Part shown: one piece after another, positions 2,380 to 14,157 of the stretch
Numbering within the stretch: the stretch's first letter is position 1
How the letters are laid out: every line of letters starts with the position of its first letter
Source: Pseudomonadota bacterium
Lineage (GTDB): Bacteria > Pseudomonadota > Gammaproteobacteria > Steroidobacterales > Steroidobacteraceae
NCBI GenBank assembly: GCA_021792555.1
Contig: JAJYUL010000021.1
Coordinates: forward strand, 1-57,147
DNA length: 57,147 nucleotides
Direction: 5' to 3'
Translations under genes and position numbers: made by a program
Notes under the pieces: model-generated
What the model saw: the letters and a program-made list of their open reading frames with translations, nothing else
What the model was told of the DNA's origin: nothing
Database searches by the model: none

Positions 2380-2599
2380 CGTACACGGCTCCGTACAAGT
2401 GCCCGTCAGGGCATGGCAACGACAGCCGATGCGAATGCGCAACCGAGCGCACGCCGCGCAGGGCGGAACCAGGCGCCGCCTGCTCGTTTTGCGTCGGTAT
2501 GCGGGGAACATCGATCCCACGGCATCCGCATCGGCCCCATGTCACCGCTGCGAATGACCGCTCCGTGTGGTACGCCCCGCCCACCGGTTGGGTGACCGC

Positions 2600-2785
2600 G
2601 CTGGCAGGTCTCCTGGCTCGCGGGTCATGATCTTGCGTCCGGCCTTCCCAGTGTTTCCAGTGGCCATGATGGACGCGGACTCGCCGCTCACAGTTACGGG
2701 GGTAGCCGCGGCATCGACTCACTCGGAGTGCACCGCGTTCCCTCTTGCCTCCCCGGCGCCAACCGGGGAACCAGCACGCGGGCGG
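2600..2785 (-). promoter_or_regulatory. Cobalamin (B12) riboswitch
   Basis: Read on the minus strand the segment shows the conserved order of a cobalamin riboswitch: GGGAACGCGGTG near 2740, then GCTACCCCCGTAACTGTGAG (about 2708 to 2689), GCCACTGG, CTGGGAAGGC, and finally the B12 box GAGCCAGGAGACCTGCCA at 2602-2619. It lies about 50 bases downstream of the small membrane protein gene and about 220 bases ahead of the receptor start. Adenosylcobalamin binding is expected to lower receptor expression. I could not identify a clear terminator or sequestered ribosome-binding site in the 220-base leader, so the mode of control is open. Confidence 0.93.
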
Positions 2786-2836
2786 CAGTCTCCGCAATTC
2801 GGCCGCGGGCGTCAAGCGGCGTGCGCCGCCGGGGTC

Positions 2837-7578: not shown

Positions 7579-8852
7579 ACATGCACTCCGACAATCACAT
7601 CGGCGAGATGATGGAGCGCCTCGGCCGCAACGCCGTCGCCGCCGCGGCGGTGCTAGCCCGGACGCCTTCAGCGGTCAAGGACGAGGCGCTCGCGGGCGCC
7701 GCAGAGGCGTTGCGCGCTCGCGCCGGCGAGATCCTCACCGCCAATGGCCACGATCTTGCGGCCGCGCGCGCCACCGGGCTCGGCGCGGCGCTGCTCGAGC
7801 GTCTGACGCTCAATGCCGAGCGGATCGAGTCGATGGCCGGCGGGATCGAGGCCATCGTGAAGCTTCCCGATCCCATCGGCACCATCGCCGCCGAATGGCA
7901 GCGCCCGAACGGCCTGAAGATCCAGCGCGTGCGCGTGCCCCTCGGCGTGATCGGGATCATCTACGAGAGCCGCCCGAACGTCACGGCGGACGCCGGTGCG
8001 CTGTGTCTGAAATCCGGCAACGCAGCGATCCTGCGCGGCGGCTCGGAGAGCGCCCGCTCGAACGCCGCCATTCACGCCTGCCTCGTCGAGGGCCTGCGCG
8101 GCGCCGCTCTGCCCGCCGAGTGCATCCAGCTGGTTCCGACCACCGACCGCGCGGCGGTCGGCTACATGCTCTCGGGCATGACCGAGTACCTCGATGTGAT
8201 CGTGCCGCGCGGCGGCAAGAGTCTGGTCGCGCGGGTGCAGCAGGAGGCGCGGGTGCCGGTGATCGGTCATCTGCAGGGCAACTGCCACGTGTACATCGAT
8301 CGGGACGCCGACGTGCGCATGGCCGAGACCATCGCGCTCAACGCCAAGATGCGCCGCACAGGTATCTGCGGCGCCGCCGAGACGCTGCTCCTCGATCGCG
8401 CAAGCGTCGCGACGCACATGGTTCCCGTCGTGCGCACGCTGCTCGATGCCGGGTGCGAGGTGCGCGGCGATGAGACGGTGCAGAGCGCTGATCCGCGGGT
8501 CAGGCCGGCAAGCGAGGAGGACTGGTATACGGAATACCTCGACGCCATCATCGCCGCGCGGGTCGTCGATGGCGTGGACGGGGCGATCGCCCATATCGCC
8601 CGCTACGGCTCGGCGCACACCGAATCGATCGTGACCGAGAACGAGGCCACGGCCGAACGCTTTCTGCAGCAGGTCGACAGCGCCATCGTGCTGCACAACG
8701 CGTCCACACAATTCGCCGACGGCGGGGAGTTCGGCATGGGGGCGGAGATCGGTATCTCGACGGACCGCTTCCACGCGCGCGGGCCGGTGGGCGTCGAGCA
8801 GCTGACCAGCTACAAGTACATCGTGCGCGGCGCCGGCCAGGTCAGGCCGTAG
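7575..8852 (+). CDS. proA: Gamma-glutamyl phosphate reductase
   Basis: Second enzyme of proline synthesis: NADPH-dependent reduction of gamma-glutamyl phosphate to glutamate-5-semialdehyde. 425 residues, the usual length; aldehyde-dehydrogenase fold with the catalytic Cys in [16 protein letters not shown], the cofactor segment [15 protein letters not shown], and the C-terminal signature [23 protein letters not shown] 7575 overlaps the proB stop; a second ATG two codons later is an alternative. The last 11 bases overlap the convergent moaE-moeB gene, so transcription of the two operons probably collides here. Confidence 0.96.
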
Positions 8853-10440
8853 TGGCGCGCGCGAGCGCGGCGAGCCCGCCGCGCAGAGAGAACACGTGCG
8901 CATGCCCGCGCGCGCGCAGCTCGTGTGCCGCCGCCAGGCTGCGCACGCCGGCGGCGCACACCAGCAGGCATCGCTGCGCGGGCGGCGGCTGCGCGCCGTA
9001 GAGCAGCTGCGCCATGGGGATCGCGCTGACGGCTCGGCCGGGGGCCGGGTCGCGCGAGCACTCCGCCGGCTCGCGGATGTCGATGACGACGAAGCCCGCC
9101 TCGAGCGCCGCCTCGAGGGAATCGAATTCCACTTCCACGCTCGCCCCGCTCACGCCCTCGCTGTGCGGTGCGCCGCGCCGGGTATGCTCCGGGCAGTCGG
9201 GCGCGCGCCGGGCGCGCAGGCGCGTCACGTTCAGGGTCAGCAGGTCCACCATCAGCAGCGCGTCGGTCAGCTGTCCGGGCAGGTCGAGCAGCACCTTCAG
9301 CGCCTCGAGCGCCTGCAGGGTGCCGAGTACGCCGGGAACCGGTCCGAGCACGCCGGCCTCGGCGCATGCGCCGACCAGTCCATCGCGGGCCGTCTCCGGC
9401 CAGACGCAGCGCAGGCAGGGACCGTGTCCCGGCCGGACGACCTGCAGCTGGCCTTCGTACTGATAGACGCTGGCGAAGATCGCCGGCTGGCCCGAGGCGA
9501 CGCATGCGTCGTTCAGCGCCAGCTTGCTGGCGATGGTATCGGTGCAGTCGAGAATCACGTCGTAGCCGGCAATGAGGCTGGGCGCGTTGCGCGCATCGAG
9601 CCGTGTCGGGTGGATCTGCACATCGAGCGTCGGGTTGAGCGCGCGCAGCCGCTCGGCGGCGAGCTCGACCTTGGGCCGTCCGGTTTCCGAGAGCGCATAG
9701 AGGGGCTGACGGTGCAGGTTGGAGGCCTCGAGCACATCGGCATCCACCAGACCCAGCCGGCCGATGCCGGCGGCGGCCAGATAGCTCATCGCCGGCACCC
9801 CGAGCCCACCGCAGCCCACAATCAGCACCGCGGCGCGCGCAAGGCGGGCCTGCCCGGCTGCGCCGACTTCCGGGAGCACGATCTGCCGTGAATAATCCGG
9901 ATCCGCTACGGCGCGCGCCGCCGGCTCCTGATGGGCGGCATGCCCGTGCTGGTGCCCGTGGTCGTGCCCGCGCGCCGATGCCTGAGTCTCGGCGGCCCTG
10001 AGCGCTTCGGGGGGCGCCGCGCAGCGTTCGCAGTTCACCCAGCCGGAGTCGCCCTCGAGATAGTGCTCTTTTTTCCAGATCGGGACGCGGTGCTTGACCG
10101 CGTCGATGATGTACCGGCAGGCGAGGAAGGCCTCGTGCCGGTGGCGTGCGGACACGCCCACCCACACCGCGGTTTCCCCGATCTCGAGCGCACCGAGGCG
10201 ATGCACGCAGGCGGCCCGCTCGATCCCGAAGCGTTCGATCGCCTCACTGACGATCCGCTCGCCTTCCTTGACCGCGAGCGCTTCGAACGCCTCGTATTCC
10301 AGGCGCCGCACGCGCCGGCCTTCGTTGTGCTCGCGCACCCAGCCCTCGAAGCTGGCGTAGCCGCCGGCGGCCGGACTCTCCAGCGCGGCGCGCAGCGCCG
10401 CGGGCTCGAGAGGCTCTTTGCTGAAGCGGAAGGGTGTCAT
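8842..10440 (-). CDS. moaE: Fusion MoaE + MoeB-type E1 + rhodanese, molybdopterin synthase module
   Basis: 532-residue three-domain fusion. Residues 1-135 are MoaE, the catalytic subunit of molybdopterin synthase, with the RHRHEAF and [10 protein letters not shown] active-site region (Lys123/124). Residues 155-175 form a His-rich linker containing [10 protein letters not shown]. Residues 183-415 are a MoeB/ThiF adenylyltransferase: GCGGLG at 209-214, SNLHRQ at 240-245, the D-C-T-D segment near 300, and zinc ligands CLRC (342-345) with C416 and possibly H419 in place of the usual second CxxC. Residues 435-532 are a rhodanese domain with the active loop CAAGVRS (Cys495). It should adenylate and sulfurate MoaD, then use it to make molybdopterin. 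It is last in the Moco operon, 57 bases after mobA-moaD. Confidence 0.93.
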
Positions 10441-10497
10441 GTCGTTACATCAACTTCCCGGCATGTCTGCGCGGTGGCGCATGGGGCTGATGCGAAC

Positions 10498-11355
10498 CTA
10501 CCCGCCGGCCACCGGCGGGATGAACACCACGGTGTCGCCGTCGGCGAGCGGCGCGGACCACTCGGCGAACTCGGCATTCACCGCCACGCGCAGCAGCTCC
10601 GGCGGGAGGCTGAAGGGGTGGCGCTGGTTCAGTTCGTGATACAGCTCGCGCGCCGTGGCGGCGGTGGTCTGCAGCGACTCGTTGCTGCGTCCGGCCTGCT
10701 CGCGCAGCAGCGCGTAATACTGCACCGAGACCTGCTTGGCCGCCGCGCGGCGGGGCGTGTGCAGCGCGGCGGCGGCCTGCTGGAACTCCTCCGGCGTGTT
10801 GACGTTCTCGAGCGCGCCCGGCTCGGGCTGATCGAGCAGCTCGGTGTCGGCGCCGATCAGGAACTTGCGCGGGCAGAGCCGTCCGGCCGCCGCCGCGGCC
10901 GCGAGCGGGGCATGGCTCGCCGGCTCGTAGATGGCGCACAGCGGCTCGGGCAGTCCGTCCCGGCTCGAGCGGTAGGCGGTGGCCGCGCGCTGCGGGGCGC
11001 GCGAGGCGATCAGCTGATCGAGCGTGCGCCCGTCGAGAAACGGCAGATCGCAGGCGAGCACGAGCCAGGCGGCGTGCGGGTGGCTCGACTGTGCGGCGAG
11101 GATGCCGCCGGCGGGGCCGAGATCCTCTTGTGTATCGACGATCAGCGCATGACGGGCCCGCAACGGATCATCGCGCTGCTCGGCGCGCACCGAAACGAAG
11201 GCGCGCTCCACTCGGCCCTCGAGCAGCGCGAGCGTGCGCTCGATCTGGTTCATACCGTGGTAGTCGAGCGCGGCTTTGTCGCGTTGCATGCGGCGGCTGC
11301 GTCCGCCCGCGAGCACCAGGCCGTACAGCGGCGCAACGCCGCTCCTGATCGTCAT
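10498..11355 (-). CDS. mobA: Fusion MobA (Moco guanylyltransferase) + MoaD (sulfur carrier)
   Basis: 285 residues from ATG 11355, supported by GGGGA upstream and a four-base ATGA overlap with moaC. Residues 10-195 are Mob[14 protein letters not shown] nucleotide-binding loop at 15-27, [17 protein letters not shown] and the NVNTPEE segment typical of guanylyltransferases, which attach GMP to molybdopterin. Residues 208-285 are a ubiquitin-fold MoaD ending in the free di-glycine AGG that must be adenylated and thiocarboxylated by MoeB. Keeping MoaD at the very C-terminus preserves this tail. The partner activities MoaE and MoeB are in the next gene. Confidence 0.92.
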
Positions 11356-11858
11356 GTGCGTGTCCCCTTGCGCCGCGCGGCGCGCCGGTAGGTGTGCTTG
11401 CCGCCGGATTTCGCCAGCAGCCGCACGCTCTCGATCTCGATCTCGTGCGAGAGCGCCTTGCACATATCGTAGATCGTCAGGGCCGCGACCGAAGCGCCGG
11501 TGAGCGCCTCCATCTCGACGCCCGTGCGATGGTGCACCGCCACGCGGCAGCGTATGCGGATCTGCCCGCCCGCCTGCTGTTCGATCTCGACCGAGCAGTG
11601 CTCGAGTCCGAGCGGGTGACAGAAGGGGATGAGCTCGTGCGTGCGCTTGGCCGCCATCACGCCGGCGATGATCGCCGTGTCGAATACCGGACCCTTGCGG
11701 GTGCGATGACCGCTGCGGCGCAGTTCGGCGGCGACCGGACGCGGCAGTTTCACGCGCGCTTCGGCGGTCGCCTCGCGCAGCGTTACCTCCTTGGCGCCCA
11801 CATCCACCATAGCCGGGCGGTCGTTCCGATCGAGATGGGACAGTCTGCTCGGCGCCAT
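11352..11858 (-). CDS. moaC: Cyclic pyranopterin monophosphate synthase
   Basis: Converts the MoaA product (3',8-cyclo-7,8-dihydro-GTP) to cyclic pyranopterin monophosphate. 168 residues, normal length. Visible family marks are [20 protein letters not shown] at the start, the [13 protein letters not shown] active-site loop, [20 protein letters not shown] and the KSGGK segment near the end. The start shares one base with the moaA stop (TGATG) and its own stop overlaps the mobA-moaD start, so it is tightly coupled inside the Moco operon. Confidence 0.96.
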
Positions 11859-12907
11859 CAGCCACCAATGTAGAACATTTCAACCTTGCGCGCGCCCTCG
11901 GCGGCGCGCGCCTCCTGGCGCTGCTCGCTGTAGTTGTCCGCGCGGGCGCGCCAGAGCGCGCGCAGCGCATCGAGCAGATCCTCGTCGCTCGCGCCGCTGC
12001 GCAGCCGGTCGCGCAGCGGCATGCCTTGCGTGGCGAACAGGCACGTGTACAGCACGCCGTCGGAGGACAGCCGCGCTCGGGTGCAGTCCCCGCAGAACGG
12101 CTGGGTGACCGACGAGATGAATCCCACCTCGCCTGCCCCGTCGGTGAAGCCATAGCGTTCGGCCACTTCGCCGCGGTAGGCCGGCTGCAGCGGCTCGAGC
12201 GGCCAGCGCGCCCCGATGCGTGCGAGCAGCTCGCGCGAGGGAACCACGGCGTCGCGTCGCCAGTGATTGCGGTTGCCGACGTCCATGTATTCGATGAACC
12301 GTACGATCACGCCGGTGCCCCGGAACCGCTCGAGGAGATCGAGCACCGTGTGGTCGTTCACCCCGCGCTGCACCACCGCATTGACCTTGATCGGGCCGAG
12401 GCCCGCGCGCGCGGCCTGCTCGATGCCGGCGAGCGCCTCCTCCAGGCCGCCGAACCCCCCGCTCATGCGCATGAACACCTGCGGGTCGAGACTGTCCAGG
12501 CTGACCGTGACGCGCTGCAGTCCGGCGGCGCGCAGCTCGAACGCATACTTGGCGAGCAGCGTGCCGTTGGTGGTCAGCGCCACGTCCTCGATGCCCTCGA
12601 TCGCCGTGAGGTCGCCGATCAGATCGGTGAGGTTCGGTCGCAGCAGCGGCTCCCCGCCCGTCAGGCGCAGCTTGCGCACGCCGAGGCGCACCAGCAGCCG
12701 CGCCAGTCGTACGATCTCATCGAACGAGAGCCGCTCGCGCGAGCCGAGAAAGCGGTAGGTCTCGTGGAAGGTCTCCCGCGGCATGCAATACGGGCAGCGG
12801 AAGTTGCAGCGGTCCATGACCGAGATGCGCAGATCGTGCAGCATCCGGCCGCGCCGGTCGCGCAATCCGCCCGGCGCGCGCGCGGTGAGGGCGTCGCGTA
12901 CACTCAT
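11858..12907 (-). CDS. moaA: GTP 3',8-cyclase (radical SAM)
   Basis: First step of Moco synthesis, a radical SAM cyclisation of GTP. 349 residues from ATG 12907; a longer open frame runs upstream through moeA in another phase and is spurious. The N-terminal cluster motif is Cys34-x3-Cys38-x2-Cys41 (RCNFRCPYC) and the second cluster ligands lie in [16 protein letters not shown] plus [13 protein letters not shown] and the terminal IGG are also as expected. It sits 50 bases after moeA and overlaps moaC by one base. Confidence 0.96.
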
Positions 12908-12957: not shown

Positions 12958-14157
12958 CTACCAACGGTACAGCGGCGCCACGAATCCGGCCGGGTAGGTG
13001 TTCGGCCCGGGCGGCAGTTCCACGAACCCGTCGGTACCCACGAGCGCCGTGAAGTCCCCCGAGCCCTGCGTCGGCCTCGGCATGGCGCGGCAGCAGCCCT
13101 GCTCGTCGGTGACGAGCTGCACCGGCAGAAAGAACGTGAGCGCTGGCGTCACGGTGAAAGGCTCCCCGAGCGCAATCCGCTGCGGCGGCGCGCGGGTGTG
13201 GCCCTGAGCGGCCGCCAGTGCCGGCAGCACATAGCGCGAGACGCACACCGCCGTGGAGACGGGATTGCCGGGCAGGGCCAGCACGGCGGCACCCGTGGGC
13301 GCGACGCCGAACCATAACGGCTTGCCGGGGCGCTGCGCCACCTTGTGGAAGACGCAGCGCACCCCGAGCGCATCGAGCGCCTGGGGCACCAGATCGAGCC
13401 GGCCCATGGACACCCCGCCGCTCAGCACCAGCACGTCGTGGGTCTCCAAGTGGAATTTCAGCCGCGCGTGCAGCTCGGCGGCATCGTCGCGGATGTGCTC
13501 GGTGGCGATGCGCTGATAGCCGTGCAGCCGCAGCGCCGCGGCGATCGCATAGGCGTTCGAGCGGCGCACCTGGTGAGCAAGGATCGGCTCGCCGGGCTCG
13601 ATCAGCTCGTTGCCGGTGGAGATGACCGCCAGCATCGGCTGGCTGGCAACCTGGACCCGCGCCTTGCCCGCCGCAGCGGCCACCGCGATCTGCGGCGGGC
13701 CCAAGCGCATTCCGGCGGTGAGCAGCAACGCGCCCTGGCGGGCATCCGTGCCGCGCCGGTGCACGTTCTGTCCGGGCCGCACTTCGAGGCCCTCGCGCAG
13801 ACTCGCGATCCCATCGGCCAGCGTGATCTGCTCGATGGGGATCACGCAGTCGCAGCCTGCCGGCAGGGGCGTCCCGGTCATCACCTCGATGCATCCCTGC
13901 CCCGATGCGAGCGTCAGCGGCGCATCGCCGGCCGCCTGGCTCGCCTGAACCGCAAAGCGCCGCGTGCCGCGGCTCACCGCGGCGCTGTCGAGCGCGATCC
14001 CGTCCATGGTGACCCGGTCGAAGGGCGGCTGATCGCGCTCGGCCTGGATGTCCTCGCGCAGCACCGCTCCGGCGCACTGCAGCAGCGGCAGCGAGACCGT
14101 CGGCAGGCACGTCAGATGCCGTCCGATCAGCTCATCCGCCTGCCCCGGAGCGATCAT
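12958..14157 (-). CDS. moeA: Molybdopterin molybdotransferase
   Basis: Inserts molybdate into adenylated molybdopterin. 399 residues with the four-domain MoeA pattern: PPFDRVTMDGIAL near 43-56, EVMTGTPLPAGCDCVIP, ISTGNEL, SGGVSMGRLD and the LPGNPVS loop, then the small C-terminal barrel. It is the first recognisable Moco gene of the operon, 21 bases after the stop of a small exported protein gene that may be co-transcribed. No MogA-type adenylyltransferase is present in the window, so that step must be encoded elsewhere. Confidence 0.95.
   Translation of the reverse strand: MIAPGQADELIGRHLTCLPTVSLPLLQCAGAVLREDIQAERDQPPFDRVTMDGIALDSAAVSRGTRRFAVQASQAAGDAPLTLASGQGCIEVMTGTPLPAGCDCVIPIEQITLADGIASLREGLEVRPGQNVHRRGTDARQGALLLTAGMRLGPPQIAVAAAAGKARVQVASQPMLAVISTGNELIEPGEPILAHQVRRSNAYAIAAALRLHGYQRIATEHIRDDAAELHARLKFHLETHDVLVLSGGVSMGRLDLVPQALDALGVRCVFHKVAQRPGKPLWFGVAPTGAAVLALPGNPVSTAVCVSRYVLPALAAAQGHTRAPPQRIALGEPFTVTPALTFFLPVQLVTDEQGCCRAMPRPTQGSGDFTALVGTDGFVELPPGPNTYPAGFVAPLYRW

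What the first reader, a model, noticed from the sequence alone, without database searches (positions are those of the whole stretch)
8842..11355. Molybdopterin synthase cycle condensed into two fusion proteins
Adjacent genes encode MobA+MoaD and MoaE+MoeB+rhodanese. MoaD, its activator (MoeB), a probable sulfur donor domain (rhodanese) and its client (MoaE) are normally separate proteins. Here MoaD keeps the required free C-terminal Gly-Gly while all its partners are on one chain, which would let the thiocarboxylate be made and used on a single scaffold. Single fusions such as MoaD-MoaE are known; this particular three-domain MoaE-E1-rhodanese chain together with a MobA-MoaD chain looks unusual. 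That it is rare is my inference.
Basis: partly seen in the sequence, partly recalled or inferred. Interest (0 to 1): 0.72.

Follow-up and report, generated by a model that had tools for sequence, protein, structure and literature searches.

The report
Fused molybdenum-cofactor sulfur-transfer enzymes
Two neighbouring genes each join enzymes of molybdenum-cofactor synthesis that are usually separate proteins; the larger join, common in this little-studied bacterial family, would physically tie the enzyme that recharges a sulfur carrier to the enzyme that uses it.

Summary
Window 10440-8842 (-) encodes one 532-aa chain MoaE + E1 (MoeB/ThiF type) + rhodanese; 11355-10498 (-) encodes MobA + MoaD with a free Gly-Gly end. 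They close a moeA-moaA-moaC operon. In 58 Moco loci from 60 genomes of the same GTDB family, E1 is fused to MoaE in 37, adjacent but separate in 2, absent from the operon in 19. Of 80 named loci (23 overlap that sample) 76 carry all three domains in one frame, one from the isolate Povalibacter uvarum (Steroidobacteraceae). Catalytic residues are kept wherever the sequence is readable. Operon E1 and a stand-alone 'type A' E1-rhodanese nearly exclude each other (54 of 58 genomes fit), so the fused E1 is most likely MoaD's dedicated activator; allowing for kinship the test is not significant. The two fusions vary independently, so they are not one co-selected device; channelling is untested. The linker derives from a CxxC/His-rich MoaE tail of unknown role. 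Seven searches of an open-licence paper library showed no description. New domain architecture, known pathway.

The parts
8842..10440 (-). moaE-E1-rhodanese fusion gene, 532 aa
   Evidence: open frame; Pfam MoaE, ThiF, Rhodanese above cut-off
10018..10440 (-). MoaE domain (residues 1-141) with K116 and K123 and the terminal CERC motif (C137, C140)
   Evidence: Pfam PF02391; K116/K123 in 35 of 36 aligned fused copies, the 36th (L097) has undetermined bases in this region
9898..10017 (-). His-rich linker (residues 142-181), predicted mostly disordered
   Evidence: corresponds to the C-terminal tail of unfused MoaE in relatives
9190..9894 (-). E1 (MoeB/ThiF-type adenylyltransferase) domain, residues 183-417
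   Evidence: PF00899 249.2 bits; fungal Uba4 and E. coli ThiF and MoeB are the nearest solved structures
8851..9132 (-). C-terminal rhodanese domain, residues 437-530, loop CAAGVR with C495 and R500
   Evidence: PF00581 24.6 bits (cut-off 22.2); C495 and R500 in 35 of 36, the 36th (L088) ends at a contig end
10498..11355 (-). mobA-moaD fusion gene, 285 aa
   Evidence: start overlaps moaC stop (ATGA)
10756..11334 (-). MobA-like nucleotidyltransferase domain, about residues 8-200
   Evidence: PF12804 109.9 bits; E. coli MobA 1e5k is the best Foldseek match
10501..10731 (-). MoaD domain, residues 209-285, free C-terminal Gly-Gly
   Evidence: PF02597 63.4 bits; 58 of 58 family loci end VAGG
11352..11858 (-). 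moaC (same operon)
   Evidence: PF01967, NCBIfam MoaC above cut-off
11858..12865 (-). moaA, span of the TIGR02666 match (start codon not fixed)
   Evidence: TIGR02666 372 bits, above cut-off
12958..14157 (-). moeA (same operon)
   Evidence: PF03453, PF00994, PF03454

Best explanation
The operon makes molybdopterin and, through MobA, probably its nucleotide form. The fused E1 adenylates the Gly-Gly end of MoaD (carried on MobA), the attached rhodanese delivers a persulfide sulfur so that MoaD-thiocarboxylate forms, and the MoaE domain of the same chain (or of its dimer partner) uses that thiocarboxylate to convert cPMP to molybdopterin. Because MoaD must leave MoaE to be recharged and a second charged MoaD is needed per molybdopterin, a flexible tether between MoaE and its recharging enzyme keeps the two stations close. 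The fused E1 is a Moco-dedicated activator that replaces the stand-alone type A E1-rhodanese of relatives. Shown by computation: the domain fusion, kept catalytic residues, free MoaD tail, conserved operon, near-exclusion with the type A E1. Inferred: the reactions themselves, the shared particle, any kinetic gain. The MobA-MoaD join is probably a by-product of gene adjacency that MoaD tolerates because its C-terminus stays free.
For: Domains. Over 36 aligned fused copies, window included: R244, D301, C342, C345 and C359 in 36 of 36; MoaE K116/K123 and rhodanese C495/R500 in 35 of 36, each miss being missing sequence; the same residues are invariant in a second set of 54. MoaD ends in Gly-Gly in 58 of 58 family loci and 80 of 80 named loci. 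Gene order moeA-moaA-moaC-mobA-moaD-moaE-(E1-rho) is kept in 58 of 58 family loci as far as the genes are seen, with moeA, moaA and moaC all seen in 45. Operon E1 against stand-alone type A E1 in the 58 genomes with MoaE: 2 both, 37 operon only, 17 type A only, 2 neither; Fisher p 1.3e-10; in genomes at least 90% complete 2/27/16/1, p 2.5e-9. Counting type B (ThiF-like, some with a rhodanese) as well: 6 of 39 against 17 of 19, p 6.5e-8. ThiG: 19 of 60 genomes match at E <= 0.001 and 11 pass the cut-off, but only 7 matches are full-length; in 6 of those 7 a type B E1 lies next to it. So 34 of the 39 operon-E1 genomes show no full-length thiazole synthase that would call for ThiS activation. In the window's genome three carriers of the ThiS/MoaD family were found, each with its own E1: MoaD with the fused E1, ThiS beside thiG and type B, a third carrier directly before type A. 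Operon E1s form one group (SH-aLRT 99, quick tree) apart from the stand-alone E1s. MoaD dissociation from MoaE for recharging and the need for a second charged MoaD: PMC4326299 passages. Rhodanese-bearing MoeBR/MoeZR sulfurate MoaD: PMC3227635.
Against: The exclusion test is not significant once kinship is allowed for: 6 independent pairs, 0 same way, about 4.5 opposite, median p 0.0625. The type A and type B lists were read by me and then placed by tree; MAG incompleteness can fake absence (G027, 82% complete, has no E1 found), and G058, counted under 'neither', has another E1 without rhodanese (L239). Carriers other than MoaD were searched by profile only in the window's genome; in relatives only ThiG and Gly-Gly frames near type A were checked. 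The window's own genome keeps a type A E1 that could also act on MoaD. NCBIfam equivalog cut-offs for MoeB, MoaD and MobA are not reached. The second CxxC of the E1 zinc site is C-P-E-H in the window. pTM 0.53 gives no fixed domain arrangement, and the E1 loop with C359 is of low confidence. Relatives in the same genus (G038, G054, G163) lack the fusion, so it is not needed for Moco synthesis as such.
Confidence: 0.8

Rival explanations
1. Neutral operon fusion: neighbouring, co-translated genes lost a stop codon; the domains work as they would if free, with no channelling. This can be true together with the assigned functions.
For: Fusions follow gene order; fused and unfused states occur in many combinations; a third join, MoaC-MobA, occurs in 3 loci of one genus; 2 family loci (G006, G045) and 3 named loci (L189, L196, L201) have moaE and E1-rho adjacent in separate frames; 3 relatives of the same genus lack the fusion.
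Against: The MoaE-E1 join is present in 37 of 39 family loci that have the operon E1 and in 76 of 80 named loci, across a deeply diverged E1 group, more than free drift between fused and split would suggest. The named loci were found with a query made of fused chains, so their proportion is biased.
Confidence: 0.45
2. The chain is translated or cut into separate MoaE and E1-rhodanese proteins, as MoaX (MoaD-MoaE) must be cut in mycobacteria.
For: MoaX needs cleavage after Gly-Gly (PMC4326299 passages); the linker is predicted disordered and could be protease-sensitive.
Against: A start codon with a Shine-Dalgarno-like site within 12 codons of the E1 start occurs in 0 of 36 family and 0 of 77 named fused copies. 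Here no Gly-Gly is buried, so no chemistry demands a cut.
Confidence: 0.1
3. The fused E1-rhodanese serves another carrier (ThiS or the third carrier) and MoaD is activated by the stand-alone type A E1.
For: The window's genome has three carriers and three E1s; mycobacterial MoeZR serves both MoaD and CysO (PMC3227635).
Against: 37 of 39 genomes with the operon E1 have no type A E1 found and 34 of 39 have no full-length ThiG; in the window's genome ThiS and the third carrier each sit near another E1.
Confidence: 0.07
4. Assembly or gene-calling artefact.
Against: 76 of 80 named loci carry all three domains in one open frame and 58 of 80 carry MobA-MoaD in one frame, including the isolate Povalibacter uvarum DSM 26723 (L198); G010, a single-contig genome, has both.
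Confidence: 0.01

Closest known systems
MoeBR / MoeZR (mycobacteria), MOCS3 / Uba4 (eukaryotes): E1 + C-terminal rhodanese
   Same: Same E1-rhodanese order, same proposed job of adenylating and sulfurating a Gly-Gly carrier (PMC3227635; PDB 6yub, Uba4, is the top Foldseek match).
   Different: As far as I recall none of these carries an N-terminal MoaE; here E1-rhodanese hangs on the MPT synthase subunit that consumes the product.
MoaX, MoaD-MoaE linear fusion
   Same: Joins MPT synthase cycle partners on one chain.
   Different: MoaX buries the MoaD Gly-Gly and must be cut (PMC4326299 passages); here MoaD stays C-terminal on another chain and MoaE is joined to the activator, not to the carrier.
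MoaD-MoeB and MoaD-MoeB-rhodanese fusions of archaea and some bacteria (clusters 356.1-356.3 in PMC11237513, passages read)
   Same: Carrier-cycle enzymes joined to E1 and rhodanese.
   Different: There the carrier is joined to the E1; here the client MoaE is. The passages read also list MoaC-MoaE, MoaC-MoaB, MoaC-MoaC and MoaD-MoaE, not MoaE-MoeB.
MobB-MobA (PRK14490) and MoaC-MobA (PRK14500) bifunctional proteins
   Same: The MobA half scores best against these models (205.8 and 156.6 bits); one genus of this family also shows MoaC-MobA.
   Different: Below their curated cut-offs, and the partner here is MoaD.

Membership tests
MoaE (molybdopterin synthase large subunit) | PF02391 domain above cut-off | tested here: met
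   124.9 bits against 23.4; the only MoaE match of the genome
MoaE (molybdopterin synthase large subunit) | two conserved active-site lysines (roles recalled from E. coli MoaE) | tested here: met
   K116 and K123 in 35 of 36 fused copies; the other has undetermined bases in this region
MoaE (molybdopterin synthase large subunit) | makes MPT from cPMP with thiocarboxylated MoaD | not testable with these tools
   needs biochemistry
MoeB-type E1 with rhodanese (MoeBR/MoeZR/MOCS3) | ThiF-type E1 followed by rhodanese | tested here: met
   PF00899 then PF00581; E1 fold matches Uba4/ThiF/MoeB
MoeB-type E1 with rhodanese (MoeBR/MoeZR/MOCS3) | nucleotide loop GxGGLG, NLHRQ arginine, catalytic Asp, first CxxC, rhodanese Cys and Arg (roles recalled) | tested here: met
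   present in every readable copy of 36
MoeB-type E1 with rhodanese (MoeBR/MoeZR/MOCS3) | second CxxC of the zinc site (recalled) | tested here: inconclusive
   window C416-P-E-H419; position 416 is Cys in 32 of 36, His in 3, missing in 1; the fourth ligand varies in position
MoeB-type E1 with rhodanese (MoeBR/MoeZR/MOCS3) | NCBIfam equivalog cut-off for a MoeB/MoeZ model | tested here: not met
   best PRK08762 314.2 against 449; TIGR02355 187.3 against 376.55: a distinct E1 branch, not a named MoeB equivalog
MoaD sulfur carrier | ThiS/MoaD fold with free C-terminal Gly-Gly | tested here: met
   PF02597 63.4 bits; VAGG* in 58 of 58 loci
MoaD sulfur carrier | TIGR01682 curated cut-off | tested here: not met
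   62.6 against 66.15, narrowly below
MobA guanylyltransferase | TIGR02665 curated cut-off | tested here: not met
   81 against 151.85; PF12804 met; GTP against CTP use not testable here
MoaX-type MoaD-MoaE fusion | MoaD and MoaE on one chain with internal Gly-Gly | tested here: not met
   MoaD is C-terminal on another chain

The most novel reading that the evidence does not exclude
MoaE, E1 and rhodanese form one dedicated particle in which MoaD (with MobA attached) shuttles between stations without release, and the conserved CxxC plus His-rich segment that joins MoaE to E1 is a metal-binding site that tunes the dithiolene or sulfur-transfer step, so that MPT synthase in this lineage is a metal-responsive sulfur-relay machine.
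Probability: 0.15. Interest if true: 0.65.

Novelty: new variant of a known kind. Interest (0 to 1): 0.4.

Why it matters
If the tether matters, it offers a natural case in which a ubiquitin-like carrier's activating enzyme is bound to the enzyme that consumes the carrier, with close relatives that use free enzymes as controls: a direct test of whether carrier hand-off limits molybdopterin synthesis. It also suggests how carrier-E1 specificity is partitioned (three carriers, three E1s in one genome). If it does not matter, it is a clean example of operon genes fusing in several ways without consequence.

Tried and rejected
Considered and rejected: a coordinated two-fusion device (states independent); an internal translation start before the E1; plasmid-borne spread (486 plasmid records match, 0 with one place covering at least 80% of the query); a Moco riboswitch upstream (Rfam at gathering thresholds finds only a cobalamin riboswitch and a tRNA in the window).

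Led nowhere: counting fusion origins on a MoaE tree (142 columns, 10 of 72 inner branches starred; 13 changes of the fused state on the best tree). MoaE of G062 is nearest to an unfused MoaE of its own family while its E1 groups with the operon E1s, so one old fusion with losses and repeated joining to the same E1 gene are both open. All trees are of the quick kind. The two chains were predicted one at a time; I made no prediction of the two together.

Limits of the rarity claim: class and phylum samples were searched with E-value limits (1e-90, 1e-65, 1e-70) and with at most 3 to 5 candidates per genome scored; the class MoaE table prints only part of its rows, and among the printed rows the longest MoaE frame outside the family is 285 aa. 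Distant, independent MoaE-E1 fusions could be missed. The named scan kept the best 80 of 368 relatives of a fused query, so it cannot give a proportion of fused loci.

Rows dropped or hand-set: E1 pieces up to 180 aa were left out of the E1 trees (for example L247 and L252); L105, on a contig other than that of its MoaE (G043), was labelled fused by me; L248, L239 and L116 were left out of the second E1 tree as long branches; G006, G007, G046 and G059 were left out of the concatenated tree by the program for lack of columns; L104 is not among the 36 aligned fused copies because it is cut by a contig end (it is counted in the 37). MobA-MoaD in G006 and G059 is counted as fused from a MobA remnant at a contig end. 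My note says 59 of 59 MoaD ends; the right count is 58 of 58.
Full report
WHAT IS THERE. On the minus strand the window holds moeA (14157-12958), moaA (about 12865-11858), moaC (11858-11352), mobA-moaD (11355-10498) and moaE-E1-rhodanese (10440-8842) in one direction. The mobA-moaD ATG overlaps the moaC stop. The last gene runs tail to tail into an aldehyde-dehydrogenase-family gene behind an AA-kinase/PUA gene (proA and proB by inference) on the plus strand, the two stop ends overlapping by 11 bases. Pfam supports every domain above its curated cut-off, the rhodanese only just (24.6 against 22.2 bits).

HOW OLD AND HOW COMMON. I searched 60 genomes of the same GTDB family (the window's included) with both proteins and fetched 60 stretches, 57 of them around MoaE in 57 other genomes; with the window this gives 58 Moco loci, on which I called domains. 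G036 and G055 have no MoaE match. Of the 58, 37 have MoaE-E1 in one frame, 2 (G006, G045) have moaE and E1-rhodanese adjacent but separate, and 19 have moaE alone; 33 have MobA-MoaD in one frame (two of these, G006 and G059, judged from a MobA remnant at a contig end), 21 have separate MobA, and 4 show no mobA in the fetched stretch. Both fusions together: 20 of 58. A scan of the named genome collection found 368 relatives of a fused query, of which the best 80 were kept: 76 of 80 carry all three domains in one frame, 3 (L189, L196, L201) have moaE and E1-rhodanese in separate frames, 1 (L193) is cut by a contig end; 58 of 80 carry MobA-MoaD in one frame. By identical MoaE sequence 23 of the 80 are loci already in the family sample.

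OUTSIDE THE FAMILY. Order sample, 147 genomes: MoaE in 132; outside the family only G081 and G062 have MoaE frames over 400 aa, and both are MoaE-E1-rhodanese. Unbroken MobA-MoaD matches reaching the last residue occur only in the family (13 of the 75 genomes with a match); G166 of another family has the same span with a stop codon inside. Class sample, 274 genomes: at 1e-90 only two members of the family itself match; at 1e-65 nine genomes match, the seven outside the family only over the E1 part. Phylum sample, 398 genomes: 17 match at 1e-70, but only the window's genome and G789, from another class, over the whole length; G789 (L264, 50% identity) keeps the neighbours moaC, mobA and moaD and a His-rich linker, so transfer between classes is likely. 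Within these limits the architecture is lineage-restricted but common in its lineage.

ARE THE DOMAINS ALIVE. In 36 aligned fused copies (window included) R244, D301, C342, C345 and C359 of the E1 are present in 36 of 36; the GxGGLG loop, MoaE K116 and K123, and rhodanese C495 and R500 in 35 of 36, the misses being undetermined bases (L097) or a contig end (L088). The catalytic roles of these residues are recalled. All 58 family MoaD ends read VAGG, and 79 of 80 named ones (the other VSGG). AlphaFold2 shows folded domains on flexible joints; an E1 loop with C359 is also of low confidence. Nearest solved folds are Uba4, ThiF and MoeB for the large chain and MobA for the small one; the MoaE part matches solved MoaE by sequence.

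WHICH CARRIER DOES THE FUSED E1 SERVE. The family has three main kinds of E1. The operon E1s (37 fused rows of the family, 2 adjacent, 2 fused in other families of the order) group together apart from the stand-alone ones (SH-aLRT 99, quick tree). Type B lies beside thiG in 6 genomes and is taken as ThiF. ThiG matches at E <= 0.001 occur in 19 of 60 genomes, 11 above the cut-off, but only 7 are full-length. Type A is a stand-alone E1-rhodanese. Operon E1 and type A nearly exclude each other: 2 genomes have both, 37 only the operon E1, 17 only type A, 2 neither (Fisher p 1.3e-10); of the last two, G058 has another E1 without rhodanese and G027 is 82% complete. If type B is counted with type A, 6 of 39 operon-E1 genomes and 17 of 19 others have one (p 6.5e-8). 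Kinship weakens this: the operon E1 changes 6 times on a 54-row tree, and over independent pairs type A goes the opposite way in about 4.5 and the same way in none, median p 0.0625. Both genomes with both E1s (the window's and G004) have a further Gly-Gly carrier, ending CALSGG, beside type A; three genomes with moaE alone have it too (G009, G011, G029). This resembles mycobacteria, where MoeZR serves MoaD and CysO while MoeBR is restricted to Moco (PMC3227635: outline, abstract and first part of the discussion read). I conclude that the fused E1 is the Moco-dedicated activator.

HOW IT WORKS, SHOWN AND INFERRED. MoaD must leave MoaE to be adenylated by MoeB, and completing one molybdopterin needs a second charged MoaD (PMC4326299, passages). 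Tethering E1-rhodanese to MoaE would raise the local concentration of the recharging station. The chemistry and the gain are inferences. The linker is not a new sequence: unfused MoaE of the family mostly ends in the same CxxC followed by a His-containing tail, and the fused chains read straight through it into the E1. CxxC is found in 54 of 58 family loci and, allowing for L192 which the pattern missed, in 80 of 80 named loci. Of 20 further loci 9 have it, one of them (L206, G163) from the window's own genus, so 8 of 19 outside the family. At least three His follow in 49 of 58, 76 of 80, and 5 of 20 (4 of 19 outside the family). The two fused chains from other families of the order (L203, L204) lack the His-rich stretch, so the fusion does not need it. 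Its role is unknown; metal binding is a guess.

TWO FUSIONS, ONE DEVICE? No. The tree shows no link between the MobA-MoaD state and the operon E1 (about 2.1 pairs same way, 1.0 opposite, median p 1). Three loci of one genus fuse MoaC to MobA instead. Neighbouring genes of this operon fuse in more than one way, and joins that leave MoaD's C-terminus free are tolerated. This is the strongest argument for the neutral reading, which I hold at 0.45; the presence of the MoaE-E1 join in 37 of 39 family loci that have the operon E1 speaks the other way.

LITERATURE. Seven library searches listed no paper that, from title, start of abstract or the passages I read, describes MoaE-MoeB-rhodanese or MobA-MoaD. 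The library holds only openly licensed papers, two of the searches listed only part of their hits (20 of 42 and 15 of 35), and figures are not held, so this is not proof of absence. Passages of PMC11237513 list MoaD-MoaE, MoaD-MoeB, MoaD-MoeB-rhodanese, MoaC-MoaE and MoaC-MoaB fusions; passages of PMC1779556 (12 of 34 places shown) list MoaD-MoaE and E1-rhodanese; passages of PMC6147048 concern molybdoprotein fusions. Other papers were seen only in listings.

VERDICT. Real, well conserved, functionally assignable with good confidence, and not found described in the papers searched, but a new domain architecture inside a well-known pathway rather than a new mechanism. Interest 0.4.

Noticed in passing
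window 10032-9898 (-), and MoaE C-termini of the family: Conserved CxxC followed by a His-rich segment at the end of MoaE, present whether or not E1 is fused; missing in 11 of 19 loci examined outside the family. Function unknown.
   Followed up: partly
window's genome, G000:C5:24242-25591: Stand-alone E1-rhodanese preceded by a third Gly-Gly carrier ending CALSGG (PF02597 match), possibly CysO-like; a similar pair in G004, G009, G011 and G029.
   Followed up: partly
L077, L096, L112 (genus g14): MoaC-MobA in one frame with separate MoaD, a third way in which neighbours of this operon are joined.
   Followed up: no
L264 (G789, another class of the phylum): Same MoaE-E1-rhodanese architecture with His-rich linker and the same neighbours at 50% identity; probable horizontal transfer.
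   Followed up: partly
L116 (G055): E1 with the rhodanese at the N-terminus, in a genome without a MoaE match.
   Followed up: no
window 8842-8852: The proA-like gene (+) and moaE-E1-rhodanese (-) overlap tail to tail by 11 bases.
   Followed up: no
window 2586-2790 (-): Cobalamin riboswitch (105 bits) upstream of a TonB-dependent receptor gene (439-2520).
   Followed up: no
L157 and L171: Two MAG records titled Klebsiella pneumoniae; their contig lengths and MoaE equal those of G012:C5 and G049:C2 of the window's GTDB family, so the titles look like misnomers.
   Followed up: partly
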